Source of the DNA: Arcuatula senhousia
Lineage: Eukaryota > Mollusca > Bivalvia > Mytilida > Mytilidae
Direction of reading: 5' to 3'
Assembly (NCBI GenBank): GCA_963971305.1
Contig: OZ020303.1
Span: forward strand, 43,450,106-43,514,105
Length of the DNA: 64,000 bases
The position numbers were made by a program, and so were the translations under genes. This document shows positions 1,610 to 64,000 of the stretch, piece by piece. Below the pieces are notes generated by a model. That model saw only the letters and a program-made list of their open reading frames with translations. It searched no databases and was not told the DNA's origin. Position 1 is the stretch's first letter, and every line of letters starts with the position of its first letter.

Positions 1610-31992
<30,383 letters not shown>

Positions 31993-41341: not shown

Positions 41342-42898
41342 TATACCCCACGCAACGAAGTTGCGAAGGGTATAATGTTTTTGACTGGTCCGTCCGTCCG
41401 TCTGTGATCAAAGTTTGTAATCGCAACTCCTCTTAAACTACTGAACAGAATTTAATGAAACTTGGTATGCAAGAAGAACATCATATGTAGTTGTGCATAT
41501 TACCGGGAATTTTTTATTCACAAATTTTTGTGGGAATTATGGCCCTTTGGACTTAGAAATTTGCAGAAAATCATGATTACAGTTTGTAATCGCAACTCCT
41601 CTTAAACTACTGAACAGAATTTAACGAAACTTGGTATGCAAAAAGAACACCATATGTAGTTGTGCATGTTACCGGGAATTTATGATTCGCAAATTTTTGT
41701 GGGAGTTATGGCCCTTTGGACTTAGAAATTTGCAGAAAATCATGATTACAGTTTGTAATCGCAACTCCTCTAAAACTACTGAACAGAATTTAACGAAACT
41801 TGGTATGCAAGAAGTACACCATATGTAGTTGTGCATGTTACCGGGAATCTTTGATTCGCAAATTTTTGTGGGAGTTTTGGCCCTTAGGACTTAGAAATTT
41901 GCAGAAAATCATGATTACAGTTTGTAATCGCAACTCCTATAAAACTACTGAACAGAATTTAACAAAACTAGGTATGCAAGAAAAACATTATATGTAGTTG
42001 TGCATATTACCGGGAATTTTTGATTTGCAAATTTTTGTGGGAGTTATGGCCCTTAGGACTTAGAAATTTGCAGAAAATCATGATTACAGTTTGTAATCGC
42101 AACTCCTCTAAAACTACTGAACAAAATTTAACGAAACTTGGTATGCAAGAAGTACACCATATGTAGTTGTGCATGTTACCGGGAATTTTTGATTCGCAAA
42201 TTTTTGTGGGAGTTTTGGCCCTTAGGACTTAGAAATTTGCAGAAAATCATGATTACAGTTTGTAATCGCAACTCCTCTAAAACTACTGAACAAAATTTAA
42301 CGAAACTAGGTATGCAAGAAGAACACCATATGTAGTTGTGCATGTTACCGGGAATGTTTGATTCGCAAATTTTTTTGGGAGTAATGGCCCTTGGAACTTA
42401 GAAATTTGCAGAAAATAATGATTACAGTTTGTGATCGCAACTCCTCTTAAACTACTGAACAGAATTTAACGAAACTTGCTATGCAAGAAGTACACCATAC
42501 GTAGTTGTGCATTTTACCTGGAATTTTTGATTCGCAAATTTTTGTGGGAGTTATGGACCTTTGGACTTAGAAATTTGCAGAAAAACATGATTACAGTTTG
42601 TGATGGCAACTCCTCTTAAACTACTGAACGAACAGAATTTAATGAACCTTAGTATGCAAGAAGTACACGATATGTAGTTGTGCATATTACAAGGAATTTT
42701 TTATCCCCAAATTTTTGTCGGAGTTATGGCCCTTTGGACTAAGAAATTTGACATAACTTTGTTATGATATTCAAATACTTGCACATTCACTTTTACAATC
42801 ATTCAATATTATTGATTCCTGTAGCTAGATACTAATTCCTCAAGGATAACATTGATAGTCCATTAGCGGCACGCGTGGGGTATGTGAGCGTGCACACT
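41342..42898 (+). repeat. Tandem-core element, TATACCCCACGC family (169-bp monomers, ~7-8 copies)
   Basis: The head is a double hairpin: outer TATACCC/GGGTATA, inner CGCAAC-GAA-GTTGCG. A CCGTCCGTCCGTC microsatellite follows. Monomers repeat every 169 bp, with GGTATGCAAGAAG at 41465, 41635, 41803, 41972, 42141 and so on. The tail GCGTGGGGTAT repeats the head strand in inverse form, followed by GTGAGCGTGCACAC. The 65-codon frames that recur at a 169-bp spacing are repeat translated by chance, since 169 is not a multiple of three. Confidence 0.75.
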
Positions 42899-48895: not shown

Positions 48896-49689
48896 TCTTA
48901 TTTCTTGCAAACAAGACTATGAATCTTACGGAAGCCCCGGAGGGACAATTGGACTTACTATTTACAGACTTTACTTTTGACTTATTTATTCTGATTTGTT
49001 TTTTTAATGAGGTGTGGATTTGGGTAACTTATTGGGGAAGGGACTGATACTCTGTGAAATGACCAATTTAACGTTCTAAGGGAAACAACGATCAAGAAAG
49101 GTCTTACAACTTTGACCCCATTGCATAATTTTTATATCTCTATGTGCTTAACCATATGCAATTAACTTTTTTCAAATATCTTGTATAATTTACAAGAAAT
49201 TAGTCTAAAAAAAGAGCAAAATTTGTCGAAAAAAAAATCAAAGAAAAAGGGCAATAACTCCTACAACCAGAGTCAGATCTTCTTTAAAAGTTCAGGGCAG
49301 GTAGATTTTGATGTGCTGATTACTACTTTCCTAGCCAGAATTTTTATTTCTGTTACCTTTTTTTAGCAAAAAAAACCCCCAAAAAACTGCAATTACCCTT
49401 ATGTTCTATTTTTAGCCGTGGCGGCCATGTTTTTTTGTTAAATCAAAATTTCAAACGACGGTTTTGTAGAAGACATACTACAGAACAACTCTAATATTAA
49501 AGTTTGATACATTTGGCAAAGCGGTGTTAAGAGAAGATTTTTGAATTTTGAACAAAAAGCTGTGAAAATGGTCATTTTTAACGATCTAAGGGTCATAATT
49601 CCTACAGTCCTATAATTTTGACTCTGCTACAACTTTTCTAGATCTTGATGTGCTTAACGATATAATTTTTTTTGGATATCTTGTATAAT

Positions 49690-50758
49690 AGTTTTCAAGA
49701 TTCATCACATTCGCACTAAATTGTATTCTATTCCTCTTTCCAAACTTCACACACTGTACAAAGAATGTCTCGAAAATCCAGTGACTGATTTTAAATCCAA
49801 CCTGTACCGTCTTACAGCCATTGTTCTTGACATTGAAAACAACCGATTATTTAAACCAGTCGGTGCACCACACGAAAACAACAAGGACAATCGCTCTTTC
49901 ATTTCTCTTCCATTTTTATGCAAATGTTTAGATGCCATAAATTTAGGAAATATTTTACACCATAAATCTGTTACAGAACATATCCCTCCTTATTTCAAAG
50001 ACAAAAGTGTTCCTGTCATTTCTTATTCCTATACTTCCACCATTGCACCTAAGGTATTTAACTACAAACAAGTTTTGCGGGATTACCAAATCAACGACCT
50101 CAAAGCAAAACCACCAGACTGTTCTTGTGACAAATCCCCATTCAAATGTAGTCCATCTGGCCACGTTATTACCGGGGACCTCAACATCGTGGAAAACGAC
50201 CAACTCCGCGATGTTTTGGCCAAAGGACCAAAATATCGTGAGCCTAGAGCAATCAACTGGAACCATAATTTCAAAACAATTATGGATTCAGTTGAAGACT
50301 ATGTCAGAAAATGGGCCAAAAAAGAACATGAAAAAGAAAGCGATGTTCTTTCTGAGTGGGTAAAGTCTGTGAGGTCGTTGGTTTTGAAAAGGATTAACTC
50401 TTTAAAAGACTCGATGAGCACCAAGGCAACATCTATTTTCAACAACCCTGATGTTGCGAAGACATTGTCAACCTTACATGACAAACATGTTGTCGTACCC
50501 GCTGATAAAGCGGCTAACAACATCATTTTCGTATGCAAAAGACACTATATTGATTGTTTAACAGCTGAATTAGGGGTTGGTTGTACTAGCAAAAGCACCA
50601 CCTATACAGCAACAACACTGTCAAAGGAGGAAATAATCAACAATCATAATTCTGTCATTTGTTCATTTGGCATTTCTGTTGACAAAAAGAACGATGACGT
50701 TCCATCCTTGTATTGGATGCAAAAGTTACATGAAACTCCATACAAGCAACGATTTTAG
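49690..50758 (+). pseudogene. Penelope-like reverse transcriptase, N-terminal fragment
   Basis: An open frame without a start runs from about 49702 to a stop at 50756-50758. It holds VVPADKAANNIIFVCKRHY and then LYWMQKLHETPYKQRF, which correspond to the conserved ADK and 'PKLHK..YK.R' motifs at the front of the RT domain in Penelope-like and related metazoan elements. Everything after that, including the catalytic palm, is absent. The frame breaks directly into a ~68-bp piece of the CAGTGAAA/CAAACCTG MITE family (50759-50826) and then the element's own 3' tail (50827-51150). The copy is therefore 5'-truncated and internally deleted and cannot be active. Confidence 0.75.
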
Positions 50759-50826: not shown

Positions 50827-51150
50827 AATTCAGGTTCATTTTTGTTGGTTTGACATAGAGTTTTGTAATGTCATCCTTTCCGGATTAGACCAAAACTAAA
50901 TCGATCTTTGGCAACATGACGGGTGTGCTATAGCAAACAGGAACTGCTTACTCTTACGGAGCACCTGAGTTCACTCTCGTTTCGACTTAATTGAGTTCAC
51001 GTTGCTGAATGCGGTTTTGTTGTTATGTGTGTGTGTATGTTTTTTTATGTTGTTATGTGGTTTGTTTTGTTATGATGATTTTTTGTCTACCGGTTTCGTC
51101 TCCTTCTTTACGGTTTTATGATACTGATTACCCCTTTGCTTCTTTCAAGA
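50827..51150 (+). mobile_element. 3' tail of the Penelope-like element, copy 1
   Basis: It runs from about TTTGTTGGTTTGACATAGAG to GATTACCCCTTTGCTTCTTT. The same tail appears at 55345-55531, 56085-56263 and 62536-62820. In the last of these it directly follows an RT C-terminal frame, which links tail and RT as one family. Confidence 0.7.
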
Positions 51151-53497: not shown

Positions 53498-55892
53498 TGT
53501 AACAAGAGGATCGGGTTTTTATGCGGAACCGTCCCCTGGTGTCGAAAGAATAAAAGCTTCGTTCACTGGGATTGAGCTCTGGCATGTGACAACAAAAAGA
53601 CTGATGTTTAGATAATTTTATTCAATTCAAGTACAACTGCCACGTGGCTGTAATTTTCTAAAAGTACTTCCACAAGCCAAAAGTTGAAATTAAAAGAAAA
53701 GTTAACCCGGGTTGTAGCCATGCAGACAATCTACTGTGGTTCAATTCCGCACCAAGCCCTTAAGTTAAACAAAACACATCTTCAAAATCTAAAGTCTCTC
53801 ATAGATAGTATTATAGTCCAAATATTACTGCAATTAATTCAAAGTCTTTGGTTATAAATATCACAATTGAAATCATTCATGAGGTTTACTAGAAAATGTC
53901 TCTTCATATTAAAAAGTTTATAGTTCCATAACAGTAACTGCACATGGTTTACAGGTAACATCAAGGGAGATTACTTCGACTCTCCCGCTACACTCCTCCC
54001 CTCCATATTCAAATTAGAATGTTGTACATTTGAAACCATCGAATCAATCTTCATTCCAACAGTTCACCACTGCCTTTTCTATGCATGATAGCTGTTCATC
54101 ATCTCTTCCAAAACCATTTCCAGATTGCAAAGTAAAGGATTTTGTACCCTTTTCAACTGCAAAATAAATTCTGCTGCTTCACACTGAAAAAATGCTTAAA
54201 AACAACTTTGAATTTAAATGGCAAACGAAAAACATATTCACATTTTTTCAAACTTGTGTGAAATGATTTACAATTATGATCTAACATATCATACTCGTTG
54301 GTATACTAGTAAATACATCTCGTCTAAATTTAATGACTTTAAAAAGCAACATATGCATTGTCAATATACAAAATACATGATCAAATACACAAAAATAATG
54401 AATAATAACAAAAAAGACAATATCACATATCGCGAACACTACCAAAGCAAACCCTTAGTGCTTAAAACTCCACTGTAAAGGCTAGACTTAGATACCCCTA
54501 CTCTCAATTCGGAAGTACTAAATTAAGTCTTCTGACATCTAACTAGACTCTACAAAACATAAACTTCAACATAATAATTATCAACACGATAAATGCAAAA
54601 CATATCAAATATTGCATACATTATTACAATTCAAAAACAAATATTTTACCCCCTAAACATCCGCATACAAATCTAACATTCACATAATTCATTCTCACAG
54701 TTACAAACCGTCTCACCAATCAGAACAATCACTCATCAAACATCAAGTGCAATGTGCTCGTCACAACTGTATAGAAACTTTCTTGAAAAATAAGGCAGCC
54801 AATGAGTTATATCTTCTGATCCAAAAATATTACAAAGTGTGAAATATGTCCAACTTACATTTGAACCCAAGTTCTCTTCGTGTATAAAAGTTCCTTTAAT
54901 ATTCCTCTTTTACAATACAAAAATTCTTATGATTTAAAATACAAGTTTGTAAATGAATCTTAACATCATTTCATATAAAAATTATAACTTTTGTGGCATC
55001 TTCTACGTGTATAATACATCTTTAATTTACATCAAAATTAAGTTATAAATCTTTGAGCTAGATTTACAATTCCAATAAGCAATTGTCATCAGCTTTTCAT
55101 CCTCACAAACCAATAGTTTTAGCATCAATCCCCACAATGGTCATCAAAAATGTAACAGGAGGGTCGGGTTTCTATGCAGTTATAATTTTATTTACTGTCA
55201 CAAATTGTCATAATCACTTATATGTAATTGTATGCTCTATCATAGGGCCCTTAATTGGAATAAAGTCGAAACACCTTCTCGTGTCGAAAGAATAAAGGGT
55301 TCGTTCACTGGGATTGAGCTCTGGCATGTGAGAATGAAAAGGCTGCACCTGAGTTCACTCTCGTTTCGACTTGAGTTCGCGTTGCTGAATGCGGTTTTGT
55401 TGTTATGTGTGTGTGTTTTATGTTGTTATGTGGTTTGTTTTGTTGTGATGATTTTTTGTCTGCCGGTTTTGTCTTTGTCTTTACGGTTTTATGATACTGA
55501 TTACCCCTTTGGTACACCTTTGCTTCTTTCTGATGTTAAGATCTCTTTATTCATTCAAAAATTACAACTGCAACATGGGTGTAATCTTCAAAAAAAAGTA
55601 TTTCCACTAGCCAAAAGTGGAAATTAAAGAAACGTTAACCCCGGGATGTAGCCGTATACACTAGCTACTATGCTTCAATTTCGAACCTAGCTCAATAGTT
55701 ACTAGTAAACAAAAACAGGTTCAAAATTTGAAGTCTCTCATAGATGTTACTGCAAATAATTCAAAGTCTCTGGTTATAAAAAGTCCAAGCACAGTTGAAA
55801 TCATTCATAAGATTTACCAGAAAATGTCTCTTCATATTTAAAAGTTTATAGTTCCATAACAGTAATTCCACATGGTCGACTCTCCCGCTACA
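53498..55892 (-). mobile_element. Non-autonomous LTR retrotransposon (LARD/TRIM-like), ~2.4 kb
   Basis: Two direct repeats begin TGTAACA(A/G)GAGG and end CTCTCCCGCTACA: 53498-53992 and 55151-55892. They are flanked by ATAC on both outer sides (53494-53497 and 55893-55896), a 4-bp target duplication. Read on the minus strand, a polypurine tract GGAGGGGAGGAG (at 53993-54006) abuts the LTR at 53498-53992, so the element is on the minus strand and that LTR is its 3' one. The ~1.16-kb interior has no gag or pol frame. The LTRs differ in length: one has lost ~85 bp and the other carries a 187-bp retroelement tail. I see no clear primer-binding site. Confidence 0.75.
55345..55531 (+). mobile_element. 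Penelope-like 3' tail inserted in the LTR, copy 2
   Basis: Comparison with the other LTR shows a clean insertion between ...AAAAGGCTG and TGATGTTAAG. The insert runs from CACCTGAGTTCACTCTCG to GGTACACCTTTGCTTCTTTC and matches 50975-51150 and 62640-62820. It is a 5'-truncated copy, as expected of target-primed insertion. Confidence 0.7.
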
Positions 55893-56084
55893 ATACATTA
55901 CTCTCATTTACAATGTAGCAAACATGGTATAACATTTACCCGAGCTATTTAGTTATTTTAGATTTAAGACGTCTTCTATAAAAATAGTTGGTATGTAGTA
56001 TTACTTTAAATATTTTTTATATTAAGCACTATGAGCTCATATAATTTATTATAATTCAAATATCATATGTATCGTTGCTACGTA

Positions 56085-56263
56085 ACGGGTGTACTATAGC
56101 AAACAGAAACTGCTTACCCTTTAGGAGTGATTGGGAGTTGATTGTGGTGTAGTCATGCGTGTTTTTGTTTGTTGTATGGTTTGTTTTTGTGACAGTTTTG
56201 TATGTTCCCTTTCGCATTTATGACATTTTATTGCCCCTTTGGTACACCTTTGCTTCTATCATT
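56085..56263 (+). mobile_element. Penelope-like 3' tail, diverged copy 3
   Basis: It begins ACGGGTGTACTATAGCAAAC and ends CCCCTTTGGTACACCTTTGC. It is more diverged than the other tails, and the middle differs. Confidence 0.6.
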
Positions 56264-58396: not shown

Positions 58397-59532
58397 AGCT
58401 CACCAGGCCAGGTGAGCTATTGCCATCACTTGGCGTCCGTCGTCGTCGTTAACTTTTCTTCAAACTTCTTCTCCTCTGAAACGGCTGCACAGATTCAAAC
58501 CAAATTTGGTTTGGTGGTACTTTAGGGTATCCCCCACAGAACTGATGTGGAGAAAAACATGGCCGCCGTTGCTAAAAATAGACCACGGGGTTCAGACTAC
58601 TGTTTTTGGCTTGTAAATCAAAAAGTATAAGAGATAAATGAAATCTGTTGCCACCCTGCTGCTTCAGCATCAAAAGTTCTACAGAAGTCTCCATTTGGTC
58701 CAAGTTGTCAGATGACCCCTTATAGGGGTTACAGCCCCTTAAGGTGAAAAATAGCGTTTTTTTTTTCATGTTTTTGCCCTATAGTAAGAAAACTATTGCA
58801 GATAGAGAAAAGTGGTTGCTTGCTTAAATGTTCAGCTTATTTAGCTCTACAAAGGTCTCCATATGGTCGAAGTTGTCAGATGACCCCTAATAGGGGTTAC
58901 GGCCCCTTTAAGGCAAAAAATAGTGTTTTTGGCCGATATGATGAAAACTATTGCAGATAGAGAAAAGTTGTTGCTTGCTTAAATGTTCAGCTCATTTAGC
59001 TCTACAAAAGTCTTCTAGGGTCGAAGTTGTCAGATGATCCCTTATAGGGGTTACGGCCCTTTAAAGGCAAAAATAGTGTTCTTGGCCAATAGAATGAAAA
59101 CTATTGCAGATAGAGAAAAGCTGTTGCTTGCTTAAATGTTAAGCTCATTTAGCTCTACAAAAGTCTTCATAGGGCCAAAGTTGTAAAATGACCCTTCATA
59201 GTGGTTACGGCCCCTTAAAGTCAAAAAGTAGTGTTTTTGGCCTATAGGATGAAAACTATTGCAGATAGAGAAAAGTTGTTGCTTGCTTAAATGTTCAGCT
59301 TAATTAGCTCTACAAAAGTCTTCTTAGAGTCGAAGTTGTCGGATGACCCCTTTAAGGGGTTATGGCCCTTTAAAGGTGAAAAATTGTGTTTTTTGCTTTG
59401 GAATGAAAACTATTGCAGATAGAGAAAAGCTTTTTATTGCTTAAACATTCAGCTCATTTAGCTATACAAAAGTCTTCAAAGGGTCGACATCAAGACCAGG
59501 TGAGCGATTCAGGCTCCTGGGAGCCTCTCGTT
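58397..59532 (+). repeat. Pearl/HINE-like element, AGCTCACC family, copy 4
   Basis: The head is AGCTCACCAGGCCAGGTGAGC, followed by a CGTCGTCG run, about five ~155-bp monomers and the tail CCAGGTGAGCGATTCAGGCT with the GGCTCCTGGGAGCC palindrome. Here the head lacks the GGACC-GAA-GGTCC inner stem and instead reads CCAGGCCAGG, a shortened hairpin. Confidence 0.7.
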
Positions 59533-59539
59533 AAGATTT

Positions 59540-60890
59540 CTGTCAGATTTTCGGAATCCTCTGGAGTTTACCATTAAAATAGGGATAATTTTTTTTGCCC
59601 AGACGCCCCCTAATTTCTTTTCATATTAAGGTTTATTGAGTCATTTAGAGCCTATTAATAAAGTTTTATAAATTTCTTGTTACTATTTCATAGGTTTTTA
59701 CACTAAAACAAGCCTATTGCGTAACTTATGAAAGCCAGATAAAGCCTTTTACCGCCATATTTTGAACGATTATTGTCTCTTGAAAACGAATTCAGCAACT
59801 TATCAATTTTTAAGTTTATTTTGTATCTTTACCTATGGTCTATTCATCATTATATAAATTTAGATACCTTGCTGTTTTGAAGCTGACCAGCGAACATCAT
59901 AAAAAGCAGAAATTAGGTTAGCTTCGAGTTTACTTTTGACATTAGGTTAGCTTCGAGTCTTTGACCAAATGCTCCACTGCAGAAATTAGGTTAGCTTCGA
60001 GTTTACTTATGACTACTTTGTATGACTACAAACGCTCGACTGCTTTCAAGCTTAGTTGGAAAACATTCATAGTTCGTTCTCTGACTGATTTAAAAAGCAG
60101 TCGTGTGACCGTCAATTAAGTCACCTTCAAAAGTGGTTTGCTATTAGACTGAATTAAAAAGCTTTAGCACGGCATGTCTTTACATGACAATTTTGTGGTT
60201 TTTTTGTGGGGGATTGAAAGTCCTTTTCAAAACATCTGCACCATACAAGAACATACATGACGTTCAGATTAAATGGTGATAGAAATCTGAGTACCCGTAG
60301 CAAACAACTGACCAAAGGCAGTTAACTGACAAATTAAAGCTTATAACATAAAGTTGAGGAAGTCCAGTTCTTGAAAATAACAAAGTGTGATTTCGAGCGT
60401 TGATACAAGCTAGTGATCAATAAGATGTCATTAAATCCTGATTAAGAGAAGTCTGCTTATTGTGACTGGACTGGGTTTAGCAAATAACGACTTTGTTTTC
60501 TTTGACTTATCAGGAACTTAACATGGATGTTTTCTACAACAGACATGATCGGACATGAAAATTAGACACAAAGTTACTTCATGTTAACCTCCGTAAATGT
60601 AATGTGTGTATTAACCTGTAACAACTTATTTGTCAATTCCTTATGGCCCAATTTCTGTAATAATTATTACATGAGAACGCGGTGTTTCAGAAAAAGATAA
60701 TCCCGACGGCCGGATGGATGATCCGGATCAGATCACCCCTGTTAAAACAAAAGAGCTGGGATGAAATGTTTAATAAAACACAAAAACGTGTCATCTTATG
60801 AATGGATAAAGTTACCCTTTTGTGCTCCCCCTGAATGAAGCGTTGCATCAAAGAGGCTAGGAGGTCCGCTTCATATTTGGATCTTTTTCT
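59540..60890. other. Intervening sequence with a short triplicated motif
   Basis: GAAATTAGGTTAGCTTCGAG occurs at about 59911, 59985 and (partial) 59942 within 100 bp. The rest is unique sequence in this window, with no exon or repeat that I can define. Confidence 0.4.
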
Positions 60891-60930
60891 CGAAATACAA
60901 ATGACAACAAAGTTCCAGACAATAAATTTT

Positions 60931-60980
60931 GCTACGCCTGACGCGCGTTTCGTCTATTCAAGACTCATCAGAGGCGCTCT
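60931..60980 (-). ncRNA. Hammerhead ribozyme, unit 1
   Basis: Minus strand, 5' to 3': stem I GCGCCT, core CTGATGA, stem II GTCT-TGAAT-AGAC, core GAA, stem III ACGCGCGT, then C17 and stem I return AGGCGT. All catalytic-core bases are present. Cleavage is predicted between 60940 and 60939. Stem III is only ~2 bp as a hairpin but is self-complementary, so two copies could pair as a dimeric hammerhead, as known for short-stem-III animal hammerheads. Confidence 0.85.
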
Positions 60981-61288
60981 ACCAAAAATATTGAAAATGC
61001 CAAACACTGTATGAATATGAAGAGCATAGAACAGTATAACCAAAAATACCAAACTGGGAAACCAAATTATTACTAAGATATTCAACCTATGTCTGGGGTA
61101 GGAAGAACCTTAGGGTTTAAACAATTTTGAAATGTAGACGGATAATTTAAAGCTTTGATGTATTCTCCAACTCAAAAGTGTTGGTGCCGGAGCGGGCTAA
61201 CCTCGGGGAATTTAAACTCCACCAGCAGTGCTAACCTTCACGTGTGTTCGAAATACAAATGACAACAAAGTTCCAGACAATAAATTTT

Positions 61289-61338
61289 GCTACGCCTGAC
61301 GCGCGTTTCGTCTATTCAAGACTCATCAGAGGCGCTCT
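61289..61338 (-). ncRNA. Hammerhead ribozyme, unit 2
   Basis: Identical to unit 1, 358 bp downstream. Predicted cleavage between 61298 and 61297. Confidence 0.85.
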
Positions 61339-61646
61339 ACCAAAAATATTGAAAATGCCAAACACTGTATGAATATGAAGAGCATAGAACAGTATAACCA
61401 AAAATACCAAACTGGGAAACCAAATTATTACTAAGATATTCAACCTATGTCTGGGGTAGGAAGAACCTTAGGGTTTAAACAATTTTGAAATTTAGACGGA
61501 TAATTTAAAGCTTTGATGTATTCTCCAACTCAAAAGTGTTGGTGCCGGAGCGGGCTAACCTCGGGGAATTTAAACTCCACCAGCAGTGCTAACCTTCACG
61601 TGTGTTCGAAATACAAATGACAACAAAGTTCCAGACAATAAATTTT

Positions 61647-61696
61647 GCTACGCCTGACGCGCGTTTCGTCTATTCAAGACTCATCAGAGGCGCTCT
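61647..61696 (-). ncRNA. Hammerhead ribozyme, unit 3
   Basis: Identical to unit 1. Predicted cleavage between 61656 and 61655. Confidence 0.85.
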
Positions 61697-62004
61697 ACCA
61701 AAAATATTGAAAATGCCAAACACTGTATGAATATGAAGAGCATAGAACAGTATAACCAAAAATACCAAACTGGGAAACCAAATTATTACTAAGATATTCA
61801 ACCTATGTCTGGGGTAGGAAGAACCTTAGGGTTTAAACAATTTTGAAATTTAGACGGATAATTTAAAGCTTTGATGTATTCTCCAACTCAAAAGTGTTGG
61901 TGCCGGAGCGGGCTAACCTCGGGGAATTTAAACTCCACCAGCAGTGCTAACCTTCACGTGTGTTCGAAATACAAATGACAACAAAGTTCCAGACAATAAA
62001 TTTT

Positions 62005-62054
62005 GCTACGCCTGACGCGCGTTTCGTCTATTCAAGACTCATCAGAGGCGCTCT
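62005..62054 (-). ncRNA. Hammerhead ribozyme, unit 4 (in the partial last unit)
   Basis: Identical to unit 1. Predicted cleavage between 62014 and 62013. It is the first ribozyme met by a minus-strand transcript. Confidence 0.85.
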
Positions 62055-62202
62055 ACCAAAAATATTGAAAATGCCAAACACTGTATGAATATGAAGAGCA
62101 TAGAACAGTATAACCAAAAATACCAAACTGGGAAACCAAATTATTACTAAGATATTCAACCTATGTCTGGGGTAGGAAGAACCTTAGGGTTTAAACAATT
62201 TT

Positions 62203-62535
62203 AAATTGACACACTAGGAATTAAGACTTTGTACTAAGCTCTATGACAAACGTGATGGCTTCAAATTTCCAATAGTCAACTTTCCCTTTCCGTGAAAGGG
62301 CGCTCCAGCATATGAAGTTTACGTATCACAATTGATTCGTTATTCCAGAGAATGTGTGGATCATAACGAATTCCTCGATAAAGCTACACGGCTGACAAGC
62401 AAATTATTAACACAGGGGTATGTTGCTCCTAGGTTGTTGTCATCACTTAAGAAATTTTACGGAAAACATCATGTGCTTGTATACAAATACGGGATTTCTA
62501 TCTCTCAGATGAGCAAAGATGATGGTTTGACATAG
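62203..62535 (+). pseudogene. Penelope-like reverse transcriptase, C-terminal fragment
   Basis: From 62218 the frame reads TKLYDKRDGFKFPIVNFPF, then an in-frame TGA at 62293-62295, then APAYEVYVSQLIRYSREC and LLSSLKKFYGKHHVLVYKYG to TAG at 62533. This is the region after the catalytic palm in the same RT family as 49690-50758. It is 5'-truncated and carries a nonsense codon, so it is dead. The family's 3' tail follows directly. Confidence 0.75.
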
Positions 62536-62820
62536 AGTTTGGTTATGTCATCCTTCCCGGATTTGACCAACACTAAATCGATATTTGGCAACGTGACGGG
62601 TGTGCCATAGCAAGCAGGAACTGTTTACTCTTCCGGAGCACCTGAGTTCACTCTCGTTTTGACTTGAGTTCACGTTGCTGAATGCAGTTTTGTTGTTATG
62701 TGTGTGTTTTTGTTGTTGTTGTATGGTTTGATTCGTTATGATAATTTTTTGTCTACCTATTTTGTCTTTGTCTTTTCGGTTTTAAGATGTTGATTACCCC
62801 TTTGGTACACCTTTCCTACT
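62536..62820 (+). mobile_element. 3' tail of the Penelope-like element, copy 4
   Basis: From ATAGAGTTTGGTTATGTCAT to GATTACCCCTTTGGTACACC. It is the most complete tail and is contiguous with the RT frame. Confidence 0.7.
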
Positions 62821-63031
62821 TAAAATGAAATCACGTAGTGCCGGAACCAGAGGAAGTGCTACATTTTATCCTGCAGAATATGTTTGTCTGCATACTAAAT
62901 GTGTTTGTTAGTTACACAGTTTCTTGATTGGTTCTACAAATATCCAAAATAAGTGGTTTGTGTATAAAACAAACTTTCCATTTTAATAAAAATGCATTGA
63001 TAATAGATTTCTGCTTTTTCGTTCTATTTAG

Positions 63032-64000
63032 ATGTTCGACCAAAGGAGAAGCTTGGAAATGACACAGAAGTTTCTCTTTTATCACAAAGAGTCTGTAAAA
63101 TGCTTGATTTTAAAGGATTGTCAAAGAAAAAGATTAAACGGCAATCAGAGATAATGTTGATAGAGGCAATCCAAAACGGGTCATGGGACGATTCATCGGA
63201 TGTATTTGGAGGAAGTTTCGCCGAGGGATCAGATTTACTGTGTAGTGATATAGATAAAATGCTCCACGTACCCAATGTTAAAGTCGTATCATCACCGGAT
63301 GAAGCAAAACAGTTTTCAAAGAATGACGTGATATTGTTGATGTGCCCTGAAAATCACAGACCCTGTTATCAATCTTTAAAATTCCTAACCCCGATCAAGG
63401 AGGGAGATTTAAGGAAATGTAAAAGGCTAGATATAAGATGTTTTGCCGAAGAGGTAGATGGAATATATTTTGCGTCGAGTGACAAATATATAAAAGCACG
63501 CCTTGAATCTCATAATTTTTCCAATAAGAAATATCCATTTGTTCGATCGCTTAATCGACATGGCCCATGTTCCGCTTTTATTACAATTGACAACGACATC
63601 GATATGGTCTATGCATTATCCGCAACTAAATGGCCTAATCAAGCACATTCCTGGATATATAGAAAACGAAAATATGGCTGGCCAAACAAAGATTTGATAC
63701 AGAAAGTTGTTGAAACAAAGTGCTCGTTGGTTCCCCTTGGTAATCCTGTGTCAGCGTTAGCACATTTGGAATGGAGGCTTTCTTTCTTACTTGGTGAAAG
63801 ACTTCTCTTTTGGAGTTTCAATAAGATTCAGTATTACTGCTATATTATAGCAAAGGATATTTTGAATCAATTAATTGCTCCAGAATTTCCAGACACGGTT
63901 GACAGTTTCCTTTTAAAAACAACCATGTTCTGGATGATTGAAGGAACTCCCCAAGAATTCTGGTCAAAAGAGAATATTTTTTGCTGCATTAAGACGATAC
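63032..64000 (+). CDS. Mab-21/cGAS-like nucleotidyltransferase (cGLR), large catalytic exon, 3' end beyond window
   Basis: A frame of 323 codons opens after the acceptor TTCTATTTAG in phase 1 and runs off the window. The nucleotidyltransferase signature is intact: GGSFAEGSD about 60 residues in, then SDIDK, whose two aspartates (63247-63249 and 63253-63255) fit the first metal ligands. A third acid lies in the strand DNDIDMVYAL (D at 63601-63603). The Mab-21 C-lobe follows: KWPNQAHSWI, RKRKYGWPNKDLIQ, LEWRLSFLLGERLL, FLLKTTMFWMIE and PQEFWSKENIF. In animals such cGAS-like receptors sense foreign nucleic acid and make cyclic dinucleotides that activate STING; others in the Mab-21 family are not enzymes. 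No cGAS zinc ribbon is visible. The upstream exon is not certain (see 53342). An internal ATG at 63090 is an alternative start. Confidence 0.85.

What the first reader, a model, noticed from the sequence alone, without database searches (positions are those of the whole stretch)
60891..62202. Four tandem hammerhead ribozymes in a near-identical 358-bp array: an animal retrozyme
Seen: an exact 358-bp period, about 3.66 units, almost no differences between units, and on the minus strand the full hammerhead core (CTGATGA, stem II GTCT/AGAC, GAA, ACGCGCGT, C17, closing stem I). Known: retrozymes are non-autonomous elements of tandem hammerhead units that circulate as small circRNAs, described in plants and some animals. 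Inference: this locus is a young, possibly transcribed source of 358-nt circles, lying in what may be an intron of an innate-immune gene.
Basis: partly seen in the sequence, partly recalled or inferred. Interest (0 to 1): 0.88.

Follow-up and report, generated by a model that had tools for sequence, protein, structure and literature searches.

The report
Retrozyme sharing a Penelope docking hairpin
In what is probably a bivalve genome, a small jumping element made of tandem self-cutting RNAs carries the same RNA hairpin, at the same distance from the same fixed starting point, as an abundant Penelope-type retroelement, which points to that element's enzyme as the one that copies it into DNA.

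Summary
The array is real: 3.7 near-identical 358-bp units at 60890-62207, with four type I hammerheads on the minus strand above Rfam's cut-off. It is an animal non-LTR retrozyme, a known kind (PMC7229834). The genome adds something that my paper searches did not list. In 38 of 38 arrays with a usable 3' end, that end falls at unit 45-50 (..GTA-TTTC|), while 5' ends vary: the mark of reverse transcription from one fixed site. Just 3' of it lies a bulged hairpin. An abundant Penelope-like element (PLE), interrupted by this very array, has the same hairpin 21-22 nt from the same kind of T-rich start. A prediction noted beforehand, that PLE insertions end there, held in 20 of 20 copies. A second, 382-bp retrozyme family has the hairpin and ends there in 35 of 36 resolved arrays. 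A covariance model built without the 358-bp family finds only its three hairpins in 64 kb. So the PLE enzyme probably mobilises these retrozymes. Transcription, cleavage and circles were not tested; the intron idea is unsupported.

The parts
60890..62207 (-). RZ1 retrozyme array, 3.68 units of 358 bp (insertion proper about 60890-62202)
   Evidence: TRF; unit comparison; uninterrupted target copies
60934..60977 (-). type I hammerhead ribozyme 1 (expected cleavage between 60940 and 60939)
   Evidence: Rfam RF00163 36.5 bits; cleavage position by convention
61292..61335 (-). type I hammerhead ribozyme 2 (expected cleavage between 61298 and 61297)
   Evidence: Rfam RF00163 36.5 bits
61650..61693 (-). 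type I hammerhead ribozyme 3 (expected cleavage between 61656 and 61655)
   Evidence: Rfam RF00163 36.5 bits
62008..62051 (-). type I hammerhead ribozyme 4 (expected cleavage between 62014 and 62013)
   Evidence: Rfam RF00163 36.5 bits
61194..61237 (-). docking hairpin shared with the PLE, copy 1
   Evidence: covariance model R1 built without RZ1, 27.8 bits, E 3.5e-6
61552..61595 (-). docking hairpin, copy 2
   Evidence: model R1, 27.8 bits; fold
61910..61953 (-). docking hairpin, copy 3 (four ribozymes but three hairpins, because the array ends 5' of where the fourth would lie)
   Evidence: model R1, 27.8 bits
60892..60895 (-). inferred reverse-transcription start, TTTC (unit positions 45-48), at the 3' end of the array on the ribozyme strand
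   Evidence: 38 of 38 usable array ends at unit 45-50
60857..60889 (+). left piece of the 5'-truncated PLE copy that the array interrupts (L046 2255 onwards)
   Evidence: blastn 94.9% over 39 nt to L046 2255-2293
62203..62821 (+). right piece of the same PLE copy: end of the RT frame and 3' UTR, ending ..CCTACTT|
   Evidence: blastn 87.9% to L046 2291-2915
49658..50755 (+). part of a PLE open frame (query that found at least 112 genomic copies)
50843..51146 (+). 3' part of the same PLE copy after an internal deletion, ending ..GCTTCTTTC|, without the hairpin
55345..55530 (+). PLE 3'-end fragment, ending ..GCTTCTTTC|
   Evidence: 98.4% to L046 2731-2917
56077..56262 (+). diverged PLE 3'-end pieces, ending ..GCTTCTATC|
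   Evidence: 76-84% to L046 2681-2731 and 2818-2919
5489..5637 (+). remnant of the second retrozyme family RZ2 (82%), ending near RZ2 unit position 49
63007..63999 (+). open frame with a Mab-21 nucleotidyltransferase domain (runs off the window); neighbour, not part of the element
   Evidence: Pfam PF03281, E 3.6e-6; one homologue, Potamilus

Best explanation
The array is a copy of a non-autonomous retrozyme (RZ1). SHOWN from sequence: four type I hammerheads; insertion at a precise site inside a PLE copy; a fixed 3' end (unit 45-50) and variable 5' ends across the genome; a hairpin just 3' of that end; the same hairpin and the same kind of fixed end in an abundant PLE and in a second retrozyme family. 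INFERRED: minus-strand transcripts self-cleave, giving 358-nt units that circularise or stay as multimers. The PLE's reverse transcriptase/GIY-YIG protein docks on the hairpin, nicks DNA, often at a T-run, anneals the freed ..AAA-3' end to UUU(C) at unit 45-48 and copies the RNA 5'-ward, passing the cleavage junction one or more times. It stops at a variable point and leaves a 5'-truncated tandem array. Because copying starts 5' of the hairpin, a single-pass copy of one linear unit loses the hairpin. Only circular or multimeric RNA (or tandem PLE loci) keeps it in the new copy. That would explain why ribozyme-made circles or multimers, and tandem PLEs, are what persist.
For: RZ1 3' ends: 38 of 38 usable ends at unit 45-50 (5 of 43 array pieces set aside). 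5' ends are spread over the unit (39 listed). PLE 3' ends: prediction written first, then 20 of 20 copies (20 chosen of 112 scored) end at L046 2913-2918 by exact continuation; the window's four PLE 3' ends lie within a few bases of the same place. RZ2 ends: 31 of 32 resolved plus 4 of 7 query-limited ones = 35 of 36; 3 of 39 unresolved. Spacing from start to CTGCTGG: RZ1 22, PLE 21, RZ2 22 nt. Blind model R1 (PLE and RZ2 only) finds exactly the three RZ1 hairpins in 64 kb, E 3.5e-6. Five sequences folded alone give the same bulged hairpin. Covariation: 7 of 17 pairs change on both sides, 0 of 500 shuffles reach it, slid controls are far lower. RZ2 against PLE: 71% over 90 nt, E 8e-7. The hairpin is present in 7 of 8 regions (6 of 7 loci) of tandem PLEs looked at. 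Target: paralogues of the 3' flank exist for 13 of 38 arrays; in 9, including all with a paralogue at 84% or more, the uninterrupted site has TTT or more in common with unit 45-47 and beyond (TTT background 0.05). PLE open frames reach 1098 aa and many copies are 95-96% identical to the window copy.
Against: All evidence is DNA sequence; no RNA, binding or transposition was seen. The hairpin is not more conserved than the rest of the RZ1 unit (rank 196 of 358 windows). Plain BLAST finds no RZ1-PLE similarity up to E 1 and only 11- and 9-letter words at laxer settings; the RZ1 link rests on the model, spacing and end position. Bacterial sequences preselected for the apex motif reach 24-26 bits by chance, not far below RZ1's 27.8. 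The RZ1 circle does not fold better than shuffles (z +0.6). In 4 of 13 loci with a paralogous target (L011, L022, L023, L043; all 83% or less) the paralogue has no TTT at the junction, and the paralogue of L019 reads CTC where its own 5' flank reads TTTTC. The in vitro PLE of PMC11167929 starts at a site not homologous to the cut DNA. A clear TSD was seen in 1 of 38 array pieces tested (L019; L045 lies in a tandem repeat; ten others show 6-7 bp repeats that may be chance). One of 36 RZ2 ends and one of eight tandem PLE regions do not fit. Other PLE or LINE families of this genome were not examined. The covariation alignment was fitted to the model.
Confidence: 0.8

Rival explanations
1. The retrozyme is real and retrotransposed from a fixed start, but by another enzyme (a LINE, or a hammerhead-bearing PLE); the hairpin was inherited from or exchanged with this PLE and is not what docks.
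For: PMC7229834 names LINEs and PLEs among candidates and points to the hammerheads of PLEs. The PLE found here has no hammerhead in the one full period examined. Other RT families of the genome were not searched.
Against: Sharing the hairpin together with the start site and the 21-22 nt spacing, in three families with otherwise little or no detected similarity, is hard to explain if the hairpin does not act at initiation.
Confidence: 0.13
2. Within the same mechanism, the templates are linear multimeric transcripts, not circles: reverse transcription of partly cleaved tandem RNA gives the arrays.
For: Two independent arrays (L014, L016) begin exactly at the self-cleavage site with 1 and 3 whole units plus 47-48 nt, as expected if the enzyme ran off a cleaved 5' end (2 of 39 5' ends at one named site, p about 0.005). 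L031 shows several unit variants recurring along one array.
Against: Units within an array are more alike than between loci (0.6% against 2.0%) and L028 has 15 full units with no substitutions, which fits copying of one circle; local amplification could also do this. Circles are abundant for mussel retrozymes in PMC7229834.
Confidence: 0.4
3. Ordinary satellite DNA that happens to carry a hammerhead, spread by unequal exchange.
For: Long arrays (15-20 units) exist and may have grown by exchange.
Against: Many dispersed short arrays in different flanks, one fixed end, and uninterrupted copies of the target.
Confidence: 0.03
4. Assembly collapse or expansion artefact.
For: Near-identical units are hard to assemble, so the copy number 3.7 is not assured.
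Against: Units carry differences, both junctions are unique, and many other loci show the same layout.
Confidence: 0.02

Closest known systems
Metazoan non-LTR retrozymes, above all those of Mytilus galloprovincialis (Cervera and de la Pena 2020, PMC7229834)
   Same: Type I hammerheads in tandem repeats of about 350-390 bp, GC below 50%, many copies (about 5000 there), two ribozyme families in one genome, coexistence with PLEs.
   Different: In the parts I read, that work reports no fixed insertion end, no docking element and no identified partner; it suggests LINEs or PLEs. Here the partner candidate is a PLE without a detected hammerhead, found through a shared hairpin and start site. I could not compare sequences with theirs.
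Penelope-like element PAc of Anolis (Frangieh et al. 2024, PMC11167929)
   Same: RT starts at a fixed internal site, part of the required RNA lies 3' of the start, genomic copies end at the start site, elements stand in tandem.
   Different: PAc has RT before GIY-YIG, carries a hammerhead, starts inside an AC-rich stem-loop within its frame, and its start is not homologous to the cut DNA. Here GIY-YIG precedes RT, no hammerhead was found, the start is a T-run 5' of a bulged hairpin, and target and template often share T-runs.
SINE-LINE partnerships by a shared 3' stem-loop (recalled, e.g. eel UnaL2/UnaSINE)
   Same: A non-autonomous RNA shares the partner's recognition hairpin and so borrows its reverse transcriptase.
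   Different: There, as I recall, the hairpin is in the copied 3' tail; here it lies beyond the start site, so it is kept only by tandem or circular templates.
Plant LTR retrozymes (PMC4918200, search listing only)
   Same: Self-cleaving non-autonomous elements with circular RNA.
   Different: Type III ribozymes, LTRs, PBS/PPT and Gypsy partners (as summarised in PMC7229834).

Membership tests
Metazoan non-LTR retrozyme | type I hammerhead in each unit | tested here: met
   four RF00163 matches above gathering score; rule-based scan. Loop-loop tertiary contacts were not tested.
Metazoan non-LTR retrozyme | short tandem repeat (about 150-450 bp), GC below 50% | tested here: met
   358 bp, GC 38.8%
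Metazoan non-LTR retrozyme | dispersed in many copies from short arrays to long multimers, not one satellite block | tested here: met
   37 further loci in the list (a capped list), 35 complete arrays of 0.4-19.4 units
Metazoan non-LTR retrozyme | no LTR, PBS or PPT and no own protein | tested here: inconclusive
   flanks mostly differ between loci and only short frames lie in the unit, so no LTR or protein is seen; PBS/PPT were not searched for
Metazoan non-LTR retrozyme | target-site duplications, when present, longer than 4 bp | tested here: inconclusive
   clear TSD (10-14 bp) in L019 only, of 38 array pieces; 6-7 bp repeats near the junction in ten others may be chance
Metazoan non-LTR retrozyme | highly self-paired unit RNA | tested here: not met
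   circular MFE -70.0 against 100 shuffles -73.4 +/- 5.7; a description in the paper rather than a strict criterion
Metazoan non-LTR retrozyme | expression as linear and circular RNA, self-cleavage | not testable with these tools
   no RNA data or bench
Penelope-like element (the partner) | reverse transcriptase and GIY-YIG endonuclease in one element | tested here: met
   PF01541 E 3e-4 and PF00078 E 1.8e-5, both slightly below Pfam's curated cut-offs; EN precedes RT in L046, where a stop splits the frame; homologue P0004 has the GIY-YIG-like part before the matching part in one protein and P0061 is named GIY-YIG domain-containing
Penelope-like element (the partner) | tandem copies | tested here: met
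   periods of 3346-3361 bp; 3357
Penelope-like element (the partner) | hammerhead in the repeat (reported for many PLEs) | tested here: not met
   none in L046 by Rfam up to E 5 or by rule; only this one full period was examined. Fits the permuted Naiad/Chlamys type, a name I recall and could not read up.

The most novel reading that the evidence does not exclude
Animal retrozymes parasitise a permuted Penelope-like element by sharing its RNA docking hairpin. The hairpin lies beyond the reverse-transcription start, so it survives only in circular or multimeric RNA, and the hammerhead exists to make such templates. This gives hammerheads in animal retrozymes a concrete role and makes tandem organisation of both elements a consequence of one initiation rule.
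Probability: 0.6. Interest if true: 0.88.

Novelty: new variant of a known kind. Interest (0 to 1): 0.82.

Why it matters
Which enzyme copies animal retrozymes into DNA is an open question in what I read: PMC7229834 and the passages I saw of a 2020 review (PMC7761336) and a 2024 review (PMC11722881) name only candidates. A shared hairpin with a shared start site gives a testable answer, a way to look for partners in other animals, and a reason why these elements use self-cleaving, circularising or multimeric RNA.

Tried and rejected
TSD search around 38 array pieces gave one clear case (L019), one inside a tandem repeat (L045) and ten with 6-7 bp repeats that may be chance; TSD is not a general feature that I can show. 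Homology between RZ1 and the PLE by plain BLAST gave only short words; it was resolved with a model that left RZ1 out. I looked for hammerheads in one full PLE period and found none. Conservation of the hairpin within RZ1 is not above average, so I do not use it as support. The circle does not fold better than shuffles. I first took the interrupted PLE copy for a rearranged one with an inverted piece; comparison with L046 shows that it is a plain 5'-truncated copy in one orientation. I first counted six loci with an inferable target, all with a T-run; a systematic check found 13, of which 9 show it and 4 do not. L151 (third retrozyme-like unit) ends next to a bacterial gene at a GATC and may be a chimera, so its end is not counted. 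Most hits of the apex pattern in bacterial genomes look like chance. Species identification by the Mab-21 frame failed (one hit). The number of hammerhead copies in the genome did not complete. Dropped before counting RZ1 3' ends: L017 (duplicate of L016), L020_7284, L022_2539 and L031_2206 (end outside the piece) and L036_2787 (array interrupted by a PLE).

Full report
Observation. The 358-bp array is there as described: 60890-62207, 3.7 copies, 99% matches, with four Rfam type I hammerheads on the minus strand and no other family match in the window at gathering thresholds. Units 2 and 3 are identical and unit 1 differs by one base. I number the unit on the minus strand from the first base after the cleavage site (1) to C17 (358).

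Organism. The genome has 1.036 Gb in 1803 contigs. Named relatives of proteins in the window include Ostrea and Pinctada for the PLE and Potamilus for the Mab-21 frame, all bivalves. The species is not identified.

Insertion, not satellite. The array interrupts a 5'-truncated PLE copy (60857-60889 and 62203-62821, plus strand; L046 2255-2915), in the opposite orientation. L036 and L046 carry the same stretch uninterrupted (..GTGTGTCAATTTCGAGAAA.. on the ribozyme strand in L036), and ATTTCGA of the target equals unit 44-50.

Fixed 3' end. I fetched the 37 further loci of that list (37 pieces) and mapped the array ends. Of 43 array pieces I set aside five: one duplicate, three with the 3' end outside the piece, and one interrupted by a PLE. 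All 38 remaining 3' ends lie at unit 45-50, that is ..TTTGTA-T/TT/TTT/TTTC(GA)| (its row for position 44 is the interrupted array L036, whose true end, 47, is counted). BLAST ends agree within a few bases. The 5' ends are spread, more often in the second half of the unit (39 ends, KS p 0.004), and two independent ones fall exactly on the cleavage site. The search query began at the end of the window array; this favours arrays longer than about 1.1 units but not a particular end in longer arrays.

Target. For 13 of the 38 arrays a paralogue of the 3' flank is at hand. In nine the uninterrupted site has TTT or more in common with unit 45-47 and beyond: W, L012, L016, L019, L020, L025, L028, L036, L045 (for L019 by its own 5' flank; its paralogue reads CTC). 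These include all with a paralogue at 84% or more. In four with more distant paralogues (L011, L022, L023, L043) it has not. TTT precedes a random point in 5% of cases. This fits priming by a nicked ..AAA-3' end annealed to UUU(C), without proving it for every insertion.

The PLE. The open frame 49658-50755 has 401 homologues at E 1e-3 or better. In the genome 112 of 10,895 candidates were scored; frames reach 1098 aa, many copies are 95-96% identical to the window copy, and some stand in tandem with periods of 3346-3361 bp. L046 covers one period; its frame has GIY-YIG before RT (Pfam E 3e-4 and 1.8e-5, both just under the curated cut-offs) and is split by a stop. I recall the name Naiad/Chlamys for such permuted PLEs; no paper describing them was held. 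No hammerhead was found in L046.

The shared hairpin. Short words of the unit recur collinearly in L046. They are part of a hairpin of the same build in both: a basal stem of 6-7 pairs, one bulged base, CU/AG, bulged GC, UGG/CCG, bulged U, and an apical GGA(N).. stem. The basal stem differs in sequence but pairs in both (GGUUAGC/GUUAGCC against GAUGUC/GACAUC). It starts 13 nt 3' of the TTTC in both. From this I predicted, in a note made before fetching (a junction in L036 had already hinted at it), that PLE insertions end at ..GCTTCTTTC|. Of the 112 scored copies I took 20 (18 of the closer group, 2 of the 86-87% group) and read 400-600 bp around the predicted place. All 20 end there, at L046 2913-2918 by exact continuation. 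The four PLE 3' ends in the window agree, two at TTTC, one two bases before it and one at the variant TATC. Of eight regions of tandem PLEs (seven loci), seven (six loci) have the hairpin and one (L072) does not.

A second retrozyme family. In L013 lies a 382-bp array (3.8 units in the piece, 99%) that carries the hairpin and a hammerhead that Rfam misses but a strict rule finds in each of its three complete copies. From the TTTC/TTTT to CTGCTGG the distance is 22 (RZ1), 21 (PLE) and 22 nt (RZ2). RZ2 matches the PLE over 90 nt at 71%, E 8e-7. Of 39 RZ2 arrays in the rows used (a capped list), 31 end at RZ2 unit 47-54, one elsewhere, and seven reached the end of the query. Four of those seven end at 47-52; three run on beyond the pieces fetched. 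That is 35 of 36 resolved.

Blind test. A covariance model from the PLE and RZ2 hairpins only (A3) gave in the 64-kb window three matches up to E 10, exactly the three RZ1 hairpins. There are four hammerheads but three hairpins because the array stops 5' of the fourth. On 45 matches (31 distinct rows, fitted to the model) 94.6% of cells pair, 7 of 17 pairs change on both sides, 0 of 500 shuffles reach this, and slid structures pair in 32-61% of cells. On the other side, bacterial sequences preselected for the apex motif reach 24-26 bits against RZ1's 27.8, and the hairpin is not more conserved than the rest of the RZ1 unit.

Other animals. Two records are likely contaminated by animal DNA. L119 is a contig filed under a Bathymodiolus symbiont, with 23.5 copies of a 74-bp repeat that is this hairpin (87% to the PLE, E 4e-14); no complete hammerhead by rule. 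L151 has a 401-bp unit with a rule-based hammerhead and the hairpin. Only 20 of the 119 rows, plus the 11 viral rows, were scanned with the model.

Reading. The RT start lies 5' of the hairpin, so a single-pass copy loses it; the window's PLE copies indeed give no model match. Only tandem loci, multimeric RNA or circles keep hairpin and start together. This makes sense of tandem PLEs and of the ribozyme in retrozymes. The last step, that ribozyme-made circles or multimers are the templates, is inference. Arrays starting exactly at the cleavage site suggest that linear multimers serve at least at times, whereas within-array identity (0.6% against 2.0% between loci; L028 has 15 units without a substitution) is what circle copying would give.

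Literature. I read PMC7229834 (text parts 1-3 of 6 and the discussion), PMC11167929 (main text), and passages of PMC7761336, PMC11722881 and PMC3846280. The first, third and fourth name LINEs, PLEs or Terminons as possible partners. Nine searches listed, by title and start of abstract, no paper on a shared hairpin or fixed start of retrozymes; most subscription papers and all preprints are missing from the library.

Limits. Everything is from sequence. RZ1's link to the PLE rests on model, spacing and end position, not on plain similarity. Other RT families of this genome were not examined.

Noticed in passing
L013:1-1453 (minus) and loci: Second retrozyme family (382 bp) with a type I-like hammerhead ending in A17 that Rfam does not report; 894 first-look candidates in the genome (39 scored).
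   Followed up: yes
L151:700-1290 (minus): Third retrozyme-like unit (401 bp) with hammerhead and docking hairpin in a contig filed as a gammaproteobacterial MAG, next to a bacterial gene; probably animal contamination or a chimeric contig.
   Followed up: partly
L119:4551-6307: 74-bp tandem repeat (23.5 copies) made of the docking hairpin in a contig filed under a Bathymodiolus septemdierum symbiont; a degenerate hammerhead-like stretch, by eye only, lies just before it (about 4490-4532).
   Followed up: partly
L036:6909-7601: A PLE fragment inserted into an RZ1 array with a 5-bp duplication (unit 32-36), so this PLE was active after that array formed.
   Followed up: partly
L028:2291-7801 (minus): RZ1 array with 15 full units without a single substitution, inside a flanking sequence that is itself repetitive.
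   Followed up: partly
L014 and L016: RZ1 arrays whose 5' end is exactly the self-cleavage site, with 1 or 3 whole units plus 47-48 nt.
   Followed up: partly
L016 and L017: Two RZ1 loci 65 kb apart on C7 with identical 500-bp flanks: segmental duplication or assembly duplicate.
   Followed up: no
window 8501-9462, 17446-18567, 58769-59487, 16154-16962, 18840-19928, 41405-42750: Other tandem arrays of 146-182 bp units; sequence of the 155-158-bp kind recurs at three places in the window and in flanks of some other retrozyme loci.
   Followed up: no
window 24992-25366: Coiled-coil exon that resembles Rho-associated kinase (recalled; Pfam gave only a weak DUF641 match).
   Followed up: no
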